DNA from: Deltaproteobacteria bacterium
Lineage (GTDB): Bacteria; Desulfobacterota; Desulfarculia; Adiutricales; Adiutricaceae
Direction: 5' to 3'
Length of the DNA stretch: 10,025 nt
Assembly (NCBI GenBank): GCA_031278795.1
Contig: JAITJT010000111.1
Coordinates: 1-10,025, forward strand
Shown here: positions 3,813-9,401 of the stretch, piece after piece
How positions within the stretch are numbered: position 1 is the first letter of the stretch
How the letters are laid out: each line of letters starts with the position of its first letter
The notes under the pieces: generated by a model
Database searches by the model: none
The model's input: only the letters and a program-made list of their open reading frames with translations
Told to the model about the DNA's origin: nothing
Made by a program: the position numbers and the translations under genes

Positions 3813-4511
3813 TTGAGCGAAACAATCGACAAGTTTAGGAACCAAAGCGACATATACACGCTGCGTGACCCATATCCCGTGAACGCCCTGGGCCCGGGCG
3901 AGTCCTGGAGGCTCTTCTCCATCATGAGCGAGTTCGTGAGGGCCTTCACTGCCATGAGCGAGGTGGGCCCCTGCGTGAGCATGTTCGGCTCGGCCAGGGC
4001 CAAGCCCGAGGACGAGAGCTACAAGATGGCCCAGGAGACGGCCAGGTTACTCGCCCAGAACGGCTTTGGGGTGGTCTCGGGCGGTGGAGGCGGCATCATG
4101 GAGGCCGCCAACAAAGGGGCTTCCGAGGCCGGAGGCCTCTCCATCGGCCTCAATATTGAGCTTCCCCACGAGCAGGTTCCCAACAGCTTCAGTAATCTCA
4201 AGATGGACTTCCACTACTTCTTCATTCGCAAGGTGGTCTTTGTGAAGTACAGCCAGGCCTACGTCATCCTCCCCGGTGGCTTTGGCACCATGGATGAGCT
4301 CTTCGAGGCCCTAACGCTCATCCAGACCAGGCGTATCCGCTCCTTTCCGGCCTTTCTCATGGGAAGATCATACTGGGCGGGCCTCATCGACTGGATGAAT
4401 GACTCCATGCTTAAAGCTGGCTGCATATCTAAAGAGGATTTGGAGCTCTACAACATCTATGACGACCCGGAGGAGGTCGTGAAAATGATAAAGCGCACCC
4501 TGGTTCTGTGA
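3813..4511 (+). CDS. LOG-family Rossmann-fold protein (TIGR00730 type)
   Basis: Proteins of this family were long misannotated as lysine decarboxylases. Characterised members cleave the base from cytokinin riboside or other nucleoside 5'-monophosphates. The 232 residues show a glycine-rich nucleotide-binding turn SGGGGGIMEAANKGA (89-103), the conserved FFIRKVVFVKYSQA segment with Arg139-Lys140, and the hallmark PGGFGTMDE (154-162). The PGGxGT loop and its Glu162 form the phosphoribose site and catalytic centre in known LOG enzymes. The N-terminal 50 residues are extra to the minimal fold. The start codon is TTG, supported by AAAGAGG at 3801-3807 and by the lack of an earlier in-frame start with a ribosome site. 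The stop overlaps the next gene, so the two are co-transcribed. The physiological substrate cannot be told from sequence. Confidence 0.9.
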   Translation: MSETIDKFRNQSDIYTLRDPYPVNALGPGESWRLFSIMSEFVRAFTAMSEVGPCVSMFGSARAKPEDESYKMAQETARLLAQNGFGVVSGGGGGIMEAANKGASEAGGLSIGLNIELPHEQVPNSFSNLKMDFHYFFIRKVVFVKYSQAYVILPGGFGTMDELFEALTLIQTRRIRSFPAFLMGRSYWAGLIDWMNDSMLKAGCISKEDLELYNIYDDPEEVVKMIKRTLVL

Positions 4512-5713
4512 TGAAGATGAATAAAAGCCTCACGTTTTTACTTTTTTCCATTATGCTGGCCTCTCTCCTCTTTCTCTCCGGCTGCGGAGGGAAGACCAGG
4601 GGCACCCTACCGGAAGGATACCCTCCGGAGGGGCCAGAGGCCCCTCCGGAGAGGATCACTCCGGTTCCTCTTTCTGGAATCCCTTCCCCCTGGGGCTCCT
4701 TGGCCCAGAACTTGGCCCAGAAGGGCCTAGCCAGAGATAGGCTCCAAAGCTTTTTCCGGAGCTCTCAGCTCTCCTTTACGCCCTCTCCCATGGAAACCAA
4801 ACTAAGGGAGCTCTTTCCCATCTTCTTCCGCTCGGATTTAACCAAGGCCGTCCAGGAGAAGCTCTACCAGCTGGGCTATGACATTGTCATAGACGGCCGC
4901 AACGGCTCGGGCACCAGGGGGGTGATTAAAAACTTTCAGAGGGATAGGGGCCTTCCCCAGAGCGGTGCGGTGAACCAGAACCTCTCTCGGGAGCTGGACA
5001 AGGCCCTTGCTAGCGGCAAGGTGAGAAATCTAGCGGACTACAAGCCGCCTCCTCCCGCGAGCCCCAACCGCTCCAGCACCCACGGCCAGTTCACTAACGC
5101 TAGCGCCATCTCCCAGATAAGAGCCAAATATTTTGAGGACAAGGCCGCTTTTGATAGGGCCCAGAGGGCCTTCCAGGTGCCTGGTCCCCTCATAGCGTCC
5201 ATAATGTGGATTGAGACTGGCTATGGAAATTATTTCGGGAAGCACAAGGCGGCCGTGAATTTGGCCTCCATGGCCGCTGCCAAGGATTATAAGGTCATTG
5301 CCCCCTACGTGTCCGACCTGGACGTGGACTCTGAGGCCCATAGCTATTTAGTCAAGACCGCTAGCGAAAGGGGAGCCTGGGCCCAGGACGAGCTTCAGGC
5401 CCTTCTTCTCTACGCCTGGCAAAACGGACTCGATCCCATGGAGTTTCCTGGATCCATCTATGGGGCCATAGGCTACGGCCAGTTCATGCCCTCTAACATA
5501 AAAAAATTCGCAGTGGACGGTGACGGGGACGGAAGGATTGACCTTTTCAATAAAAACGACGCTATCTTTAGCATTGCCAACTATCTTAAGATGAACGGCT
5601 GGTCCGGGGACATGTCCTCTCTGGAGAAGAGGCGCGCAGCCATCCGGAACTACAACCGCAGCGGGGTTTACGTGAACACCGTCCTATATGTAATGGAGGC
5701 TATTTCCCGCTGA
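4508..5713 (+). CDS. MltB-like lytic murein transglycosylase lipoprotein with peptidoglycan-binding domain
   Basis: It probably cleaves the glycan strand of peptidoglycan between MurNAc and GlcNAc to form 1,6-anhydromuropeptides, anchored in the envelope as a lipoprotein. A signal peptide ends in the lipobox LSGC (Cys26 from the GTG), followed by glycines rather than an Asp retention signal. A proline-rich linker leads to an MltB-like start (about 62-102), then a PG_binding_1-like segment (about 107-168), then the catalytic domain (about 198-400). That domain has WIETGYGNYFGKH with probable catalytic Glu236, GYGQFMPS (322-329), a calcium-loop-like DGDGDGRIDL (337-346) and an ANYLKMNGW block. 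The binding domain seems to interrupt the catalytic module. GTG 4508, ATG 4511 and ATG 4517 are all possible starts. The overlap with the LOG stop and the lack of a near ribosome site suggest translational coupling, with ATG 4511 most likely. Confidence 0.88.
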   Translation: MMKMNKSLTFLLFSIMLASLLFLSGCGGKTRGTLPEGYPPEGPEAPPERITPVPLSGIPSPWGSLAQNLAQKGLARDRLQSFFRSSQLSFTPSPMETKLRELFPIFFRSDLTKAVQEKLYQLGYDIVIDGRNGSGTRGVIKNFQRDRGLPQSGAVNQNLSRELDKALASGKVRNLADYKPPPPASPNRSSTHGQFTNASAISQIRAKYFEDKAAFDRAQRAFQVPGPLIASIMWIETGYGNYFGKHKAAVNLASMAAAKDYKVIAPYVSDLDVDSEAHSYLVKTASERGAWAQDELQALLLYAWQNGLDPMEFPGSIYGAIGYGQFMPSNIKKFAVDGDGDGRIDLFNKNDAIFSIANYLKMNGWSGDMSSLEKRRAAIRNYNRSGVYVNTVLYVMEAISR

Positions 5714-5790
5714 GAATAGCCGCTAAGGTTTTATCGAACTGTACGTAAAAAAACGTAAGTATCTCATTTTTTCACATCCCTCCTCCTTTG

Positions 5791-5823
5791 AAAGGCCCCC
5801 TAAAGAGCCTTTTTTGGGCCTTT
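5791..5823 (+). terminator. intrinsic terminator after the lytic transglycosylase gene
   Basis: AAAGGC (5791-5796) pairs with GCCTTT (5807-5812), which runs into a six-T tract (5810-5815), about 80 bases after the stop codon. The same 5' arm can instead form AAAGGCCC/GGGCCTTT with 5816-5823, a competing, longer-range stem. Termination is the simpler reading. Confidence 0.6.
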
Positions 5824-6050
5824 AGAGATGCTTATTGAGGGGGACAAAAAGGCTGAAAAATTCTGATTTCTTTAGTGTTTTCGGGCACTTGCGGCCAAAG
5901 GCCCTTCGCTTTTTTTCCTCTCCTTTGGGGCATTTTTTTGGGGCAACAGGCAAAAAAAAGCCACAAAAAAAAATTTTAACCCCCAAAACCCAGGAAAACG
6001 GCTTGTATACGCGGTTTAGGAAAAAAAAATTCAGAGAGTGGAAAAAATAC

Positions 6051-6078
6051 TTGCAATTAGTCCGGAAATGAGTATACT
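6051..6078 (+). promoter_or_regulatory. promoter of cobalamin riboswitch RS1
   Basis: TTGCAA (6051-6056) and TATACT (6073-6078) are separated by 16 bases. The start point would be near 6085, four bases before the first paired base of the RS1 aptamer. The AAAAAATRCTTG context is shared with the RS3 promoter region. Between 5824 and 6050 I see only AT-rich sequence with A- and T-runs and no supported gene. Confidence 0.7.
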
Positions 6079-6088
6079 CACCTTATTA

Positions 6089-6299
6089 GGTAGACGGAAG
6101 AGGCTTTGTTTTAGGAATATGAGGAAGTCTCTTCAAAAAAGTCTGGGAATCTCGTTTTAATCGAGAGCGGGCCCGCCTCTGTAACCGGGTACTGAAGCGA
6201 AATGGATGGGTGAGGCATCCAAACGTCACTGGCTCTTTTTAAGGGGCTGGGAAGGCAATCGCCGAGGAACGATCCGGGAGCCAGAAACCAGAGTTTACC
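6089..6299 (+). promoter_or_regulatory. cobalamin riboswitch aptamer RS1
   Basis: The conserved B12-aptamer core is present in order: GGGAATCTCG, a GCGGGCCCGCCTCTGTAACC-like block around 6167-6186, the GTCACTGGC box (about 6225-6233), GGGAAGGC (about 6249-6256) and GATCCGGGAGCCAG (about 6271-6284). The closing P1 helix is GGTAGAC (6089-6095) with GTTTACC (6293-6299), with one wobble pair. P2 is GAAGAG (6097-6102) with CTCTTC (6129-6134). Aptamers of this family bind adenosyl- or other cobalamins and normally switch off B12 synthesis, transport or B12-independent enzyme genes. Here it is followed by a post-aptamer hairpin (CTTCCC 6307-6312 with GGGAAG 6320-6325), the word GCAGGGCATCCCGAA and a terminator, a layout repeated at RS3. 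No obvious protein gene follows. Confidence 0.93.
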
Positions 6300-6347
6300 A
6301 GTCATTCTTCCCCGTGGTCGGGAAGTAGGTTCAGGAATGCAGGGCAT

Positions 6348-6392
6348 CCCGAATACCATATATTGTATGTATGGAATTCGGGGTTTTTTTTT
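6348..6392 (+). terminator. expression-platform terminator of RS1
   Basis: CCCGAATACCAT (6348-6359) pairs with ATGGAATTCGGG (6371-6382) with a single A-A mismatch, followed by nine Ts ending at 6392. It is the probable transcriptional off-switch of RS1 and is homologous in sequence to the RS3 terminator. Confidence 0.85.
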
Positions 6393-6404
6393 AGGGAACT
6401 CGTG

Positions 6405-6500
6405 ATGATGAGGTTTCTGAAAATAATCCGCTTCTACATTCAGTTCTATAACTTCCCTCCGAAAACTTCACAAAAGTTGACCGCGGAAATCTCCCATTAG
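6405..6500 (+). CDS. possible very small ORF downstream of RS1 (31 codons)
   Basis: ATG 6405 (or the in-frame GTG 6402) opens a 31-codon frame ending in TAG 6498-6500. AGGGA at 6393-6397 is placed 7 bases upstream, a plausible ribosome site, and lies directly after the T-tract of the RS1 terminator, where a riboswitch-controlled gene would begin. The predicted peptide is basic, starts MMRFLKIIRFYIQFYN and resembles no family I know. A frame this short arises easily by chance, so this is a candidate only. Confidence 0.2.
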   Translation: MMRFLKIIRFYIQFYNFPPKTSQKLTAEISH

Positions 6501-6542
6501 GGATAGGCGGGGATGCTTGAAGGGTGAGTGTCTCAACCGGAG

Positions 6543-6558
6543 GAAACTTCAAAGTTTC
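6543..6558. repeat. 7-bp inverted repeat before RS2
   Basis: GAAACTT (6543-6549) and AAGTTTC (6552-6558) are perfect reverse complements with a two-base centre, flanked on both sides by GGAGG-like words. It lies about 40 bases before the RS2 aptamer. It could be an operator or an RNA hairpin in the RS1-RS2 linker; I see no strong separate promoter for RS2. Confidence 0.35.
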
Positions 6559-6596
6559 AAGGAGGTGCCCATATTACATTAACCAACGGCATTGAT

Positions 6597-6821
6597 AGTC
6601 CGGAAAAGGGAAGCGTCGTCAAATGCGACCACGGTCCCGCCGCTGTAGCCGGGGACGAAAACGGGATGACAGAGTAGATTTGTCCGATGAAAAGGTCAGA
6701 GCCACATCGAACAAGTCGAAAATCTAGCAATAGATCTCTGTTAAAGTCACTGTGGAACTTAAAAGCCACGGGAAGGCTCCGTAAGTAGGACGATCCGGGA
6801 GTCAGAAAACCTGGCCGGATT
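6597..6821 (+). promoter_or_regulatory. cobalamin riboswitch aptamer RS2 (divergent, with insertion)
   Basis: The core elements are clear: AAAAGGGAAGCG (about 6604-6615), ACGGTCCCGCCGCTGTAGCC (about 6631-6650), GGGGACGAAA, AGTCACTGTGG (about 6745-6755), CCACGGGAAGGC (about 6766-6777) and CGATCCGGGAGTCAG (about 6791-6805). P1 is AGTCCGG (6597-6603) with CCGGATT (6815-6821). Between the GGGGACGAAA block and the GTCACTG box there are about 85 bases, against about 40 in RS1 and RS3. They can fold as nested stems: ACAGAG with CTCTGT, AGATTT with AAATCT, and CGATG with CATCG. RS2 follows RS1 by about 205 bases after the RS1 terminator, so it may be read from the RS1 promoter or from a weak one of its own. 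Confidence 0.92.
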
Positions 6822-7130
6822 AAACTTTGCGTTATATAAGGCACGTGGAAATGCCTTACGTAAAGCCCTGGGTAATAGGGTAACCCCCGGGCCTGCTAAA
6901 GAAAAACCGACCATAGAAATGGAGATAGGCCCAAAAACAGCCATTGTGGCTGGTTCTACCTCCCCGGCCGAAACGGCTGAATTTATGGGAAAATGCCAGT
7001 TTCTACGAATTGTATGGGCGGTTCTTCTTTTAATAAAAGTGACAACATTCTTCTAATGAAAACGGCTCTCTTCAGGAGGAATGTTGAAACTTACTCTCTT
7101 CCAAGGGCCTCGGCCTTTGGAGATAGAAAG
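6822..7130 (+). other. structured region downstream of RS2 with a gene remnant or small ORF
   Basis: No family-assignable gene follows RS2. Hairpins include TAAGGCA/TGCCTTA (6837-6858), a GC-rich imperfect stem from GCCCTGGG to CCCCCGGGC (6865-6891), CAGCC/GGCTG around 6939-6953 and a strong 10-bp arm hairpin TCCAAGGGCC/GGCCTTTGGA (7100-7121). One frame stays open from inside the aptamer to TAA 7054-7056. Its only ATG with a reasonable downstream length is at 6919 (45 codons), without a ribosome site, and the product matches nothing I know. AGGAGG followed one base later by ATG 7081 opens a 23-codon frame with unfavourable spacing. The region may be a decayed gene, an untranslated RNA or both. 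Confidence 0.4.
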
Positions 7131-7167
7131 AGGCTTCCTGAAGTTGGAGTGAGCAGGGAGCCTTTTT
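7131..7167 (+). terminator. distal terminator of the RS1-RS2 unit
   Basis: AGGCTTCCT (7131-7139) pairs with AGGGAGCCT (7155-7163) with one wobble, and five Ts follow. Both the stem and the loop word TTGGAGTGAG recur in the terminator at 8296-8336, showing common ancestry of the two units. Confidence 0.75.
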
Positions 7168-7298
7168 CTTTTTCTGTGACATTTTTTTTCCATCACAACC
7201 CCTAAGCTCACTCTAAAGCTCCCCCAATCTAAGAATCCTCCCCTCCAAAAAAATCCCCCATTGCACCCACTCGCCCCTTTTCACATGGACTAAACATG

Positions 7299-7340
7299 CC
7301 CCAAGCCACCCCAAGCCATCCCAAGCATCTCCCCAAGCAT
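7299..7340. repeat. short tandem repeat CCCCAAGCNN (4 copies)
   Basis: CCCCAAGC starts at 7299 and 7309, a TCCCAAGC copy at 7319 and another CCCCAAGC at 7331, so the period is 10 then 12 bases. The surrounding stretch (7200-7440) is strongly C- and A-rich on the plus strand and contains no supported gene. Confidence 0.55.
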
Positions 7341-7361
7341 CCTCAAATATTCCAGAAATTG

Positions 7362-7396
7362 AAAATAATTCCCCCCCAAAACAATCCCAAAGCCTA
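7362..7396. repeat. duplicated segment, copy 1 (AAAATAAT/C-run word)
   Basis: AAAATAAT followed by a C-run, an A-run, CAAT, CCCAAA and CC matches 8384-8421 with only small insertions. It lies about 195 bases after the distal terminator at 7131-7167, as copy 2 lies about 50 bases after its own. It marks the right end of a duplicated unit. Confidence 0.5.
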
Positions 7397-7575
7397 ATCT
7401 CAGAGGCGGGAGAAAAATGCCTAAAGCGCACAAAAACACAGTTTATGAAAAAAAATGAAATTTACCTACTAGCTTTTGTGGATCTTAAGTGTTTGGGATT
7501 ACAAAACACGCTGACTAATTTTTTTTGGCTACTGAATAATTTTGTTTTTCTAAAATTTTGCTCAATATATCGTCC

Positions 7576-7632
7576 CTTTTTTCTATAGAGAAAAAAGCCA
7601 AGGAAAAAAGTGCGGAGTGTAAAAATTTTACA
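7576..7632. promoter_or_regulatory. hairpin and 15-bp palindrome upstream of RS3
   Basis: CTTTTTTCT (7576-7584) pairs with AGAAAAAAG (7589-7597) around a four-base loop. At 7618-7632, TGTAAAAATTTTACA is a perfect palindrome about one base. It is enclosed in a wider pair, CCAAGG (7598-7603) with CCTTGG (about 7640-7645). The palindrome resembles a dimeric-regulator site, but I cannot name the regulator, and it lies about 200 bases before the RS3 promoter. Confidence 0.35.
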
Positions 7633-7687
7633 ATCAGCGCCTTGGGGAAAAAATCTTGCTTCCCTTTGTATTAAACTGGCGGAAAGT

Positions 7688-7721
7688 GGCCCCAGAGGCC
7701 GGCTTTGGCCGGCCTGGGGCC
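7688..7721. repeat. very stable GC-rich hairpin
   Basis: GGCCCCA (7688-7694) pairs with TGGGGCC (7715-7721) and GGCCGGC (7697-7703) with GCCGGCC (7708-7714). The stem therefore has 14 GC-rich pairs with a two-base GA bulge and a TTTG loop. It stands alone in AT-rich DNA, has no T-tract on either side and lies about 110 bases before the RS3 promoter. It could be a palindromic repeat element or an RNA stability structure. Confidence 0.6.
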
Positions 7722-7832
7722 TAGCTTCGCGAAAGAATGCGGTCTAAGTGTAATTGGATTAGTTTTGGACGCTGGGGCGGCAAATTTTAGGGGAAATTTT
7801 ACAAAAAAATCCCCAAAAGGCGCAAAAAATGC

Positions 7833-7862
7833 TTGAAATCCCTCAAGAAAAAGTCATATAAT
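7833..7862 (+). promoter_or_regulatory. promoter of cobalamin riboswitch RS3
   Basis: TTGAAA (7833-7838) and a consensus TATAAT (7857-7862) are separated by 18 bases. The predicted start near 7869 is four bases before the P1 helix of RS3, exactly the arrangement seen at RS1. Confidence 0.8.
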
Positions 7863-7872
7863 TGACTTGTTT

Positions 7873-8067
7873 GGTGAACCTTTGGGAAAAAGATTTTTCC
7901 CAAAGCCACAATGCTAGGGAATCTCGTAAAGAATCGAGAGCGGGCCCGCCACTGTTGCCGGGGACAAGCGCGAGATGGAGATGCCTCCAAAAGCCACTGG
8001 CTGGAAAAGCTGGGAAGGCGATCGCCCTTGGAAGATCCGGTAGCCAGAAACCTAAGCTTTGTTCACC
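7873..8067 (+). promoter_or_regulatory. cobalamin riboswitch aptamer RS3
   Basis: This is the most canonical of the three. P1 is GGTGAAC (7873-7879) with GTTCACC (8061-8067), a perfect 7-bp helix. P2 is a perfect 12-bp-arm hairpin (7880-7905). The core follows: GGGAATCTCG, GAGAGCGGGCCCGCCACTG (about 7937-7955), GGGGACAAG, AGCCACTGGC (about 7992-8001), CTGGGAAGGCG (about 8010-8020) and AGATCCGGTAGCCAGAAACC (about 8033-8052). It binds a cobalamin by family. Large parts, including the post-aptamer hairpin (CCTCCC 8077-8082 with GGGAGG 8091-8096) and GCAGGGCATCCCGAA, match RS1. The next plus-strand gene starts about 500 bases after the aptamer, beyond two terminators, so its target is not evident. 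Confidence 0.95.
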
Positions 8068-8119
8068 ACTTACTTTCCTCCCCGAGGAACGGGAGGCAGG
8101 ATCAGGAGTTGCAGGGCAT

Positions 8120-8153
8120 CCCGAATCCCATTTTGTTGGATTCGGGTTTTTTT
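8120..8153 (+). terminator. expression-platform terminator of RS3
   Basis: CCCGAATCC (8120-8128) and GGATTCGGG (8138-8146) form a perfect 9-bp stem followed by seven Ts. It is the sequence homologue of the RS1 terminator and the probable transcriptional off-switch of RS3. Confidence 0.88.
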
Positions 8154-8295
8154 GTATCTAGCTTTCGGACTTAGCGTTTAAAAAAACGTCCACTAAATTG
8201 CGAATCCCAAAAAAATATAGCTCAAGTGTCTGAAGGTCTTTCTTTCGCTTGCGCATGAGTCACTTTCGAGGGGGCGACTTCTCGGAATGGGGAAA

Positions 8296-8336
8296 AGGCT
8301 TCCTAACAAATTGGAGTGAGGATAGGGGGCCTTTTT
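8296..8336 (+). terminator. distal terminator of the RS3 unit
   Basis: AGGCTTCCT (8296-8304) pairs with AGGGGGCCT (8324-8332) with two wobbles, followed by TTTTT. It is homologous to the terminator at 7131-7167, including the loop word TTGGAGTGAG. The 140 bases between the RS3 terminator and this one contain no gene that I can support. Confidence 0.7.
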
Positions 8337-8383
8337 CTTTGCCTTTTTACTCCCCGCCTTTAATCTTGAGGCCCCTTTTTACC

Positions 8384-8421
8384 AAAATAATCTCCCCCCA
8401 AAAAACAATTCCCAAAACCAA
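8384..8421. repeat. duplicated segment, copy 2 (AAAATAAT/C-run word)
   Basis: It matches 7362-7396 in order (AAAATAAT, C-run, A-run, CAAT, CCCAAA, CC) with a few inserted bases. With the shared distal terminators it supports duplication of a whole riboswitch unit rather than of the aptamer alone. Confidence 0.5.
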
Positions 8422-8504
8422 TGATTTAAAGTAATATTTTGGAAGCTGTGGATTTTGTCCATAATCTTTACGCGTAAAATTCATGGGCGCATAGATATTG
8501 CCTT

Positions 8505-8541
8505 ACTACTTAGGTAGTTCAAAATTTTTATTTTCAACTAC
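8505..8541. promoter_or_regulatory. operator-like inverted repeats before the ImmA/IrrE gene
   Basis: ACTAC (8505-8509) and GTAGT (8514-8518) form one small inverted repeat. The second half also pairs with a third site: 11-base arms at 8514-8524 and 8531-8541 match at 10 of 11 positions around a six-base AT centre. A TATACT -10-like box (8544-8549) follows immediately, though I see no good -35 box. The site is well placed for autoregulation by the downstream HTH protein, which is an inference. Confidence 0.45.
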
Positions 8542-8567
8542 AATATACTATAGCACAATGGCCGCTT

Positions 8568-9401
8568 ATGTCTGATAAAATGAACATAAATCCAGCGATC
8601 CTAAGCTGGATTCAAACAAGATGCGCTAAAAGCGACGCGGACTGTCATAGGTATTTTGGTGAAAAGAAATTTAAGGGCTGGAAGAGCGGCGTAGTTCAAC
8701 CCACATACGCTGAACTACAAAGGATAGGTGAATTTTTTCGTAAACCCATAGCTGTATTTTTTTTCTCAGAGATACCAATATACCAAGACACTAGAAAAAC
8801 TTTTAAAACTTTACCTGACTCTGCTTCAATTTTTAGAGAAGACTTTATCGCTCTTATTGATTGGGCACGAATCATGCAGCTAAATCTTTACGAGTTGCAC
8901 GAGGGAATTAATCCCTCTTCCAACTTAATCACCCGGAGTTCTTTTGACTTGTCCCATACAAACAAGCTGGCATCTCAGTTACGCTCTACTTTAGGCCTAA
9001 GCCTAGAAGAGCAAAAACAATTTGCGTCCCCTGAGCTGGCCTTTAAGCGTTTTCAAGAGGCCTTTTACCATGCGGGCGTGTTTGTTTTTAAAGGCATCTT
9101 TAAAAATAATAATATCGCGGGGGTTTCTCTAACTGATGAAGTATTCCCGGTTATATGCATTAATGATTCACTATCTTATACGCGACAGATTTTCACCCTC
9201 ATCCACGAGCTTTGCCACCTGCTTCATGGTACAAGCGGAGTGGATTTTCTTTCTTTGCCAAAAGATTTAAGCCTCAAAGAAAACAAAATAGAGGCAAAAT
9301 GCGCTGCCTTGGCCTGTGCCTTTTTGGCTCCAGAACTAAAATTTTTGGTGGATACTCTTGAAATACCAATTGATTGCGAAAATATAAAAACGATCTCTTA
9401 G
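8568..9401 (+). CDS. HTH-containing ImmA/IrrE-type metallopeptidase, 3'-truncated by frameshift
   Basis: Members of this family (COG2856/DUF955) couple an XRE-like DNA-binding domain to a zinc peptidase that typically cleaves a repressor. They are common in phage, conjugative-element and toxin-antitoxin contexts. A short HTH-like segment (about 5-66) ends in the family pattern WKSGVVQPTYAELQRIGEFF and PIAVFFFSEIP. The peptidase domain has LIHELCHLLHG with zinc ligands His213 and His217 and general base Glu214. Glu242 in KIEAKCAALACAFLAP is the likely third ligand. The frame stops after 277 residues, whereas relatives of this architecture are about 360-390, and the missing C-terminus is recognisable downstream in another frame. 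The ATG at 8568 lacks a clear ribosome site; ATG 8580 is an alternative. Base composition is more AT-rich than in gap or the LOG gene, compatible with transfer. The peptidase core could still fold, but the gene is probably inactive or phase-shifted. Confidence 0.85.
   Translation: MSDKMNINPAILSWIQTRCAKSDADCHRYFGEKKFKGWKSGVVQPTYAELQRIGEFFRKPIAVFFFSEIPIYQDTRKTFKTLPDSASIFREDFIALIDWARIMQLNLYELHEGINPSSNLITRSSFDLSHTNKLASQLRSTLGLSLEEQKQFASPELAFKRFQEAFYHAGVFVFKGIFKNNNIAGVSLTDEVFPVICINDSLSYTRQIFTLIHELCHLLHGTSGVDFLSLPKDLSLKENKIEAKCAALACAFLAPELKFLVDTLEIPIDCENIKTIS

What the first reader, a model, noticed from the sequence alone, without database searches (positions are those of the whole stretch)
6051..8336. 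Three cobalamin riboswitches in 2 kb with no recognisable target gene
All three carry the full conserved B12-aptamer core and complementary P1 helices, and all point the same way, yet 5714-8567 contains no protein gene I can assign. B12 riboswitches normally sit directly before B12 synthesis, transport or B12-independent isozyme genes. A cluster of orphan aptamers suggests B12-controlled non-coding RNAs, unrecognised small proteins, or genes lost while their control regions stayed. Listeria and Enterococcus have a precedent in which a B12 riboswitch controls a regulatory RNA in the ethanolamine pathway.
Basis: partly seen in the sequence, partly recalled or inferred. Interest (0 to 1): 0.87.

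Follow-up and report, generated by a model that had tools for sequence, protein, structure and literature searches.

The report
Vitamin-B12-gated long noncoding RNA gene
Bacteria of one little-studied order carry a conserved, roughly one-kilobase RNA that appears to make no protein and holds two built-in vitamin B12 sensors; it looks like a regulatory RNA switched by B12 rather than leftover control regions.

Summary
In detail: three RF00174 cobalamin aptamers on the + strand (62.6, 56.0, 45.2 bits; cut-off 31.5), and 10 of the 13 ORFs of 50 aa or more within 5714-8567 gave no Pfam match (three not scanned). Relatives show that these are not relics. The first two aptamers (RS-A, RS-B) belong to one ~1.1 kb unit, window ~6051-7176: promoter-like site, RS-A, terminator, SD-like GGAGGUG, RS-B, a hairpin whose 10-nt loop ends ACCUCC, a second such hairpin, final terminator. 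I found the unit in 28 of 41 genomes of the order, one of them decayed, with differing neighbours and no ORF kept across units. Unit segments are more than 65% identical in 40 of 45 comparisons; flanks are 36-53% in 15 of 18. The ACCUCC hairpin covaries. The third aptamer (7833-8342) is a shortened second copy. Best reading: a B12-gated trans-acting noncoding RNA, in logic like Listeria Rli55/AspocR but another family: ANTAR proteins are absent from unit genomes and no recognised gene lies antisense. The effector step is inferred; a search for perfect Shine-Dalgarno targets was negative. There are no expression data.

The parts
6051..6078 (+). promoter-like site of the unit (TTGCAA-16-TATACT); start would be about 6085, at the P1 helix of RS-A
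   Evidence: 9 of 12. Across units 14 of 26 reach 9 of 12, and 9 of 26 are matched by at most 5 of 100 shuffles; for the window 9 of 100 shuffles do as well
6085..6310 (+). RS-A, first cobalamin aptamer
   Evidence: RF00174 6094-6310, 56.0 bits
6307..6325 (+). P13-type hairpin of RS-A (CUUCCCC-GUGG..GGGAAG), loop motif CGNGG
   Evidence: motif in 27 of 27 units with RS-A, by a permissive pattern; folds
6346..6392 (+). intrinsic terminator of RS-A, with an alternative fold upstream
   Evidence: fold; not flagged by the consensus scan, whose loop limit is 8
6559..6567 (+). Shine-Dalgarno-like AAGGAGGTG with no start codon behind it
   Evidence: before RS-B: GGAGG in 28 of 29 units that could be read, GGAGGT in 24, AAGGAGGTG in 9; ATG/GTG/TTG 3-14 nt downstream in 2 of the 23 that one search examined
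6571..6830 (+). RS-B, second cobalamin aptamer, without a terminator of its own
   Evidence: RF00174 45.2 bits
6838..6857 (+). P13-type hairpin of RS-B (AAGGCA-CGUGG..-UGCCUU)
   Evidence: CGNGG-type motif in 30 of 30 units, by a permissive pattern; alignment A1
6865..6892 (+). conserved GCCCTGGGTAATAGGGTAACCCCCGGGC segment
6945..6972 (+). hairpin H1; 10-nt loop 6954-6963 TTCTACCTCC
   Evidence: all 25 main-clade units had ACCTCC within 260 nt of the linker, by which H1 was cut out; the loop C at column 12 is invariant too; stem covaries
7052..7079 (+). hairpin H2; 10-nt loop 7061-7070 AACGGCTCTC
   Evidence: found by motif in 20 of 25 main-clade units; not seen by eye in the sister clade
7129..7176 (+). 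final terminator; loop holds TTGGAGTGAG
   Evidence: not flagged
7833..7862 (+). promoter-like site of the second copy (TTGAAA-18-TATAAT)
   Evidence: 11 of 12
7862..8073 (+). cobalamin aptamer of the second copy
   Evidence: RF00174 62.6 bits; same arrangement in L149
8120..8153 (+). terminator of the second copy's aptamer
   Evidence: by eye; direct repeat of the RS-A platform (D5)
8292..8342 (+). 3' terminator of the second copy, like that at 7129-7176
   Evidence: D8; both copies match one Rfam model weakly, below its cut-off

Best explanation
Window ~6051-7176 is one gene for a structured noncoding RNA of about 1.1 kb. Shown from sequence: a promoter-like site directly before aptamer RS-A; RS-A followed by the hairpins of a transcriptional B12 OFF switch (P13-type, antiterminator, terminator); then a second aptamer without a terminator, set between an SD-like element and a 3' domain with two 10-nt-loop hairpins and a final terminator; the order of parts is conserved without a kept ORF. 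Inferred: with B12, transcription stops after RS-A (~300 nt); without B12 the ~1.1 kb RNA is made. RS-B is a second corrinoid check whose only evident output is the RNA's own fold, most simply whether the SD-like GGAGGU pairs with the ACCUCC loop of H1. The long RNA then acts in trans, through the exposed C-rich loop or the SD-like element on mRNAs or the translation apparatus, or by holding a protein. How likely: noncoding B12-gated RNA about 0.85; action in trans about 0.7; the SD/anti-SD switch in particular about 0.3.
For: Three aptamers. Same unit in 23 of 41 order genomes by model R1 plus five diverged ones found by pattern and read: 28 of 41. Nine pairs of relatives: unit segments above 65% identity in 40 of 45 values, flanks 36-53% in 15 of 18. 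Noncoding: 22 of 122 indels divisible by three; longest ORF beats 95% of shuffles in 1 of 27 units; no ORF kept in more than 9 of 22 other units. RS-A platform folds. H1 stem: 20 cells changed on both sides, shuffled mean 7.0, 0 of 500 as high, best slid version 9. MltB tree, labels by R1: 3 changes against 7.2 in shuffles. Facing genes differ between loci, which speaks against action in cis. Two RNAs of the same gating logic are known (passages of PMC8079631 and PMC5821096).
Against: No transcript, ligand binding or phenotype was measured. Promoter matches are modest (9 of 26 units stand out from shuffles). RS-B falls below the Rfam cut-off in 4 of 19 units. The pairing of the SD-like element with the H1 loop has no covariation support, and unit L162 (G033) lacks GGAGG but keeps the loop. 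On H1, the number of pairs with a change on both sides (5) is no better than shuffles (135 of 500 as high). Targets with a perfect complement of the loop before a start codon are not enriched: 13 listed places (two overlapping) in 11 of 41 genomes against 12 for the reversed pattern and 36 in 19 of 41 for a one-base-changed one. H2 is missing in 5 of 25 main-clade units. In three of nine pairs the 3' domain is only 49.5-57.4% identical.
Confidence: 0.68

Rival explanations
1. Relics: leader regions left after their target genes were lost.
For: No recognised gene follows in the window; two small genomes of the order have no aptamer (G001) or a decayed unit (G004: no RS-A seen, H1 loop changed).
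Against: The gene-less unit is kept in 28 of 41 genomes with conserved parts and a covarying stem.
Confidence: 0.04
2. The unit is an mRNA for a small protein, or a dual RNA, translated from the SD-like site.
For: An SD-like GGAGG lies before RS-B in 28 of 29 units.
Against: ATG/GTG/TTG 3-14 nt behind it in 2 of 23; no kept ORF; indels not in threes.
Confidence: 0.07
3. It acts in cis on a neighbouring gene, as a convergent or antisense transcript.
For: In L202 the convergent genes are a FecCD/ABC/periplasmic-binding set that could import B12; ORFs of like size face the unit in L164, L165, L173 and L174.
Against: The facing gene differs: phosphoribosyltransferase, then KARI, in L205, MipA in L162, MFS in L206; in the window the next recognised gene is ImmA/IrrE on the same strand; T-run terminator candidates end 20 of 23 units, the other three read by eye.
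Confidence: 0.08
4. The long RNA sequesters a protein, as EutX/Rli55 does with EutV, but another protein than an ANTAR factor.
For: A fixed loop on a covarying stem suits protein recognition; perfect mRNA targets were not enriched.
Against: No candidate protein is linked to the locus; ANTAR itself was not found in any of the 28 unit genomes.
Confidence: 0.25
5. The RNA is a corrinoid buffer: aptamers held for binding B12, not for regulation.
For: Two aptamers and no gene; the second copy in window and L149 is little more than an aptamer with terminators.
Against: A buffer needs no terminator switch, SD-like element or covarying 3' hairpin.
Confidence: 0.05

Closest known systems
Rli55 (Listeria) / EutX (Enterococcus)
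   Same: B12 aptamer plus terminator gates a noncoding RNA; short form with B12, long form with effector without (passages of PMC5821096 and PMC8079631).
   Different: Rli55 is about 450 nt, with an ANTAR site for EutV; here ~1.1 kb, two aptamers, 10-nt loops, and no ANTAR protein found in unit genomes.
AspocR (Listeria)
   Same: A B12 riboswitch shortens a noncoding RNA of 1,400 nt to 230 nt (passages of PMC8079631).
   Different: AspocR is antisense to pocR; I recognised no gene opposite this unit, and its neighbours differ between loci.
LhrC family (C-rich loop regulators)
   Same: UCCC motifs in loops that pair with SD regions (passages of PMC8079631).
   Different: No aptamer is described for them in those passages; targets here are unknown and perfect ones not enriched.
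Tandem riboswitches
   Same: Two aptamers in a row (review PMC9481103, passages).
   Different: Those control a downstream gene, as the tandem cobalamin aptamers before TonB-receptor-like genes in L211-L213 seem to do (by eye); here nothing recognised follows.
Ornate large RNAs (OLE, GOLLD, ROOL)
   Same: Large conserved structured noncoding RNAs (starts of abstracts in the listing).
   Different: No relation seen: within the units Rfam gives only RF00174 above cut-off.

Membership tests
Cobalamin riboswitch RF00174 | covariance score above gathering | tested here: met
   three hits in the window
Cobalamin riboswitch RF00174 | P13-type hairpin with a conserved loop behind the aptamer (its kissing role is recalled) | tested here: met
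   CGNGG-type motif: RS-A 27 of 27, RS-B 30 of 30, permissive pattern
Cobalamin riboswitch RF00174 | binds a corrinoid | not testable with these tools
   needs in-line probing
Cobalamin riboswitch as cis leader | gene on the same transcript | tested here: not met
   no kept ORF, no Pfam match for 10 of 13 ORFs of the window region, terminator behind
EutX/Rli55 | B12 aptamer and terminator before a noncoding effector part | tested here: met
   RS-A platform, by folding only
EutX/Rli55 | ANTAR-domain partner protein in the genome | tested here: not met
   PF03861 in 1 of 41 genomes (G041), none of the 28 with the unit; the window's own genome is not held
EutX/Rli55 | ANTAR site (paired hairpins) in the RNA | not tested
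   no dedicated scan; the two conserved loops seen are 10 nt
AspocR | antisense to a gene on the other strand | tested here: not met
   no Pfam match for the four minus-strand ORFs given in 6111-7431; two others listed there were not scanned

The most novel reading that the evidence does not exclude
A B12-switched RNA that carries both a Shine-Dalgarno mimic (GGAGGUG) and an anti-SD mimic (CUACCUCC in a 10-nt loop) around a second aptamer: corrinoid binding decides whether the two mask each other, and the unmasked form acts on ribosomes or on many mRNAs when B12 is short.
Probability: 0.2. Interest if true: 0.93.

Novelty: new variant of a known kind. Interest (0 to 1): 0.8.

Why it matters
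The B12-gated noncoding RNAs that I found in print are from Gram-positive bacteria, each tied to one pathway. This would be an order-wide family outside them, with two aptamers in one RNA and a conserved 3' effector domain, in bacteria related to Candidatus Adiutrix (termite-gut symbiont and acetogen, recalled). It also shows that 'orphan' riboswitches can be gene parts rather than debris, which can be checked elsewhere by asking for conserved terminators behind gene-less aptamers. G005 holds the unit on a single 4.48 Mb contig, so deletion and RNA-seq are conceivable if that strain can be grown, which I do not know.

Tried and rejected
Gene loss, small protein, cis action and the ANTAR model: see rivals and membership. 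Model R1 (linker behind RS-B) missed the sister clade, so a pattern was used as well; that pattern in turn misses six R1 genomes (G010, G012, G013, G020, G023, G033). The five pattern hits outside the order (G119, G208, G100, G115, G175) were read: L249, L252 and L253 lead into genes that look BtuB- or CbiK-like (by eye), L250 into a short ORF, L251 runs off its contig. R1 hits G019:C98 (inside an 862-aa ORF) and G435 (7.3e-4, not read) were not counted. RNAalifold on the linker gave only 10 pairs, 4 with changes on both sides, covariation term -0.39, so the linker helices are weakly supported. H2 is weaker than H1 (14 double-change cells against 7.8, 1 of 500 shuffles as high, but further pair types no better than shuffles). 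GGTCAGAG looked diagnostic of RS-B in the main clade (22 of 23 units) but occurs in 7 of 37 fetched aptamer loci, at least two of them not units, and I did not see it in the sister clade. SD-target search: negative. The unit has no match in plasmids or phages. Paper searches listed nothing on such an RNA in this order; I saw titles and starts of abstracts of the listed papers only (for example 10 of 70, 10 of 33), and passages of three papers. The direct searches are Adiutrix with riboswitch: one paper, on the Wood-Ljungdahl pathway, not opened; Adiutricales with noncoding RNA: none.
Full report
1. What is there. The window is a 10,025-base record with no whole genome held. Its recognised genes: CobT (-, 367-1461), GAPDH (-, 1469-2485), a LOG-type protein (+, 3813-4511), a lytic transglycosylase MltB (+, 4508-5713) and an ImmA/IrrE-type protein (+, 8568-9401) (gene names by family, recalled). 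Nearest relatives are records named Deltaproteobacteria bacterium and Candidatus Adiutrix; NCBI puts that genus in Candidatus Adiutricales, Thermodesulfobacteriota. That the window and the 41 genomes called 'order of G002' belong there is inferred: G001 holds a Candidatus Adiutrix record (L001), but groups of G handles are not told. The three aptamers are real, and 10 of 13 ORFs of the region, on both strands, have no Pfam match.

2. Relatives. L002 (Gx485_bin194) has LOG, MltB and then two RF00174 hits with no gene that I recognise. In the order of that genome RF00174 rings in 40 of 41 genomes and MltB in 29 of 41. I fetched 30 stretches around MltB. Rfam found RF00174 in 20 of 31 sources, the window included; one of the 20 (L157) only touches a unit at its edge, read later as L204. 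The other 19 each carry RS-A, RS-B, a GCACGwGG-type hairpin (ACACGTGG in L156) and an ACCTCC element. In 17 of these the unit follows MltB within about 2.5 kb; in L165 and L174 it lies 6-8 kb away, so it is not tied to that gene.

3. Distribution. A covariance model of the linker behind RS-B (R1) hits 23 of 41 order genomes (one extra hit in G019 is false), 3 of 395 in a phylum sample, all three from the order, and 24 of 63 in the class, the 24th at 7e-4 and unread. A sister lineage missed by R1 has the unit too: reading the tandem aptamers of G009 led to a pattern that matches 22 of 41 order genomes and none reversed. It adds G004, G005, G007, G008 and G009, giving 28 of 41. In G005, G007, G008 and G009 I read RS-A, terminator, GGAGG, RS-B, the CGNGG hairpin and H1 in the same order, with a longer H1 stem and CUACCUCC in the loop; H2 was not seen, and the last hairpin of G007 has no T-run. 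G004 shows no RS-A upstream and its loop reads TACTTTCC. G005 contig 1 has the length of the contig of C4J81_03380, 'Deltaproteobacteria bacterium Smac51', so it is probably that genome. The unit is single copy except in G028 (two). On an MltB tree with labels by R1, 22 of 24 rows of one supported clade have the unit (window included) and none of six in the sister clade; by pattern four of those six have it (G004, G005, G007, G009), and the tree was not recounted. The oldest inferred origin is before the split of both clades.

4. Anatomy. Promoter-like sites of 9 of 12 or better lie upstream of RS-A in 14 of 26 units; 9 of 26 are matched by at most 5 of 100 shuffles. Behind RS-A lie a CUUCCCC-CGNGG-GGGAAG hairpin (27 of 27), an alternative pairing of its 3' arm or of GGUUCAGGAU with the terminator's 5' arm, and a terminator (20 of 23 units folded, four of them with a wrongly cut stretch). 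This is the layout of a B12 OFF switch by termination; that B12 drives it is inferred. Before RS-B stands GGAGG in 28 of 29 units that could be read (missing in L162; L203 is cut), GGAGGT in 24 and AAGGAGGTG in 9, without a start codon 3-14 nt behind in 21 of the 23 that one search examined. RS-B keeps a CGNGG-type hairpin (30 of 30, permissive pattern). The 3' domain has H1, a 5-bp stem around a 10-nt loop ending ACCTCC. H1 was cut out by searching ACCTCC within 260 nt (25 of 25 had it), so that motif is partly by selection; the stem was not selected, and 84% of its cells pair, with 20 double-change cells against 7.0 in shuffles and at most 9 in slid versions. H2 was found by motif in 20 of 25. 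In 12 close units the final terminator loop TTGGAGTGAGC is invariant.

5. Constraint and coding. In nine pairs of relatives RS-B is 76-86% identical and the linker 75-94%; upstream flanks are 36-51% with one exception (L149/L148, 62.5%), downstream flanks 41-53% with two exceptions (71.8 and 81.4%) where the next gene begins. The 3' domain ranges from 49.5 to 80.5%. Of 122 indels in unit segments 22 are multiples of three. The longest ORF beats 95% of shuffles in 1 of 27 units. Of 132 plus-strand ORFs of 30 aa or more in 23 units, the best-kept is in frame and open in 9 of 22 others. In some loci (L158, L163) same-strand ORFs lie farther downstream; they were not identified.

6. The third aptamer. 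Window 7833-8342 has its own promoter-like site, aptamer, terminator and a 3' terminator like the unit's, but no second aptamer. L149 has the same. In L148 a promoter-like site and the 3' terminator remain without an aptamer (by eye). I read it as a shortened second copy; whether it works is open.

7. Mechanism. The layout matches the Listeria and Enterococcus RNAs in which B12 shortens a regulatory RNA (passages read). The effector differs. Candidates are the C-rich loop acting on SD regions, as loops of LhrC do, a switch between SD-like element and loop, or a protein partner. Against the first: perfect targets are no commoner than the reversed pattern (13 rows against 12) and rarer than one one-base control (36). 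Against the second: no covariation, and L162 lacks one partner. So the effector stays open.

8. Limits. No expression data; many genomes are in hundreds of contigs, so absences (13 of 41) are weak; kinship labels are withheld for G handles; R1 was scored with strict filters, on 10 candidates per genome in the phylum search.

Noticed in passing
window 8568-9401: ImmA/IrrE-type protein (Peptidase_M78) downstream of the array; no partner gene recognised beside it.
   Followed up: no
L002 15275-15941 and 18632-19765: Downstream of the unit lie two adjacent ORFs that look like a nucleotidyltransferase/HEPN pair and one that looks like a tyrosine integrase (by eye), hinting at an insertion spot behind the RNA gene.
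   Followed up: no
L211 100-2994, L212 1250-2645, L213 (reverse) 1284-2584: Other tandem cobalamin aptamers in the order precede TonB-receptor-like genes, with terminator-like stretches behind the aptamers (by eye); a contrast to the gene-less unit.
   Followed up: partly
L150, L152, L153, L155, L207, just behind the unit: A second terminator-like hairpin with a GGAGTG loop follows the unit's own terminator.
   Followed up: no
L202 1992-4653 (-): FecCD/ABC/periplasmic-binding genes converge on the unit; ORFs of similar size face it in L164, L165, L173 and L174.
   Followed up: partly
G001 and G004: Two small genomes of the order have no RF00174 match at all (G001) or a decayed unit (G004).
   Followed up: no
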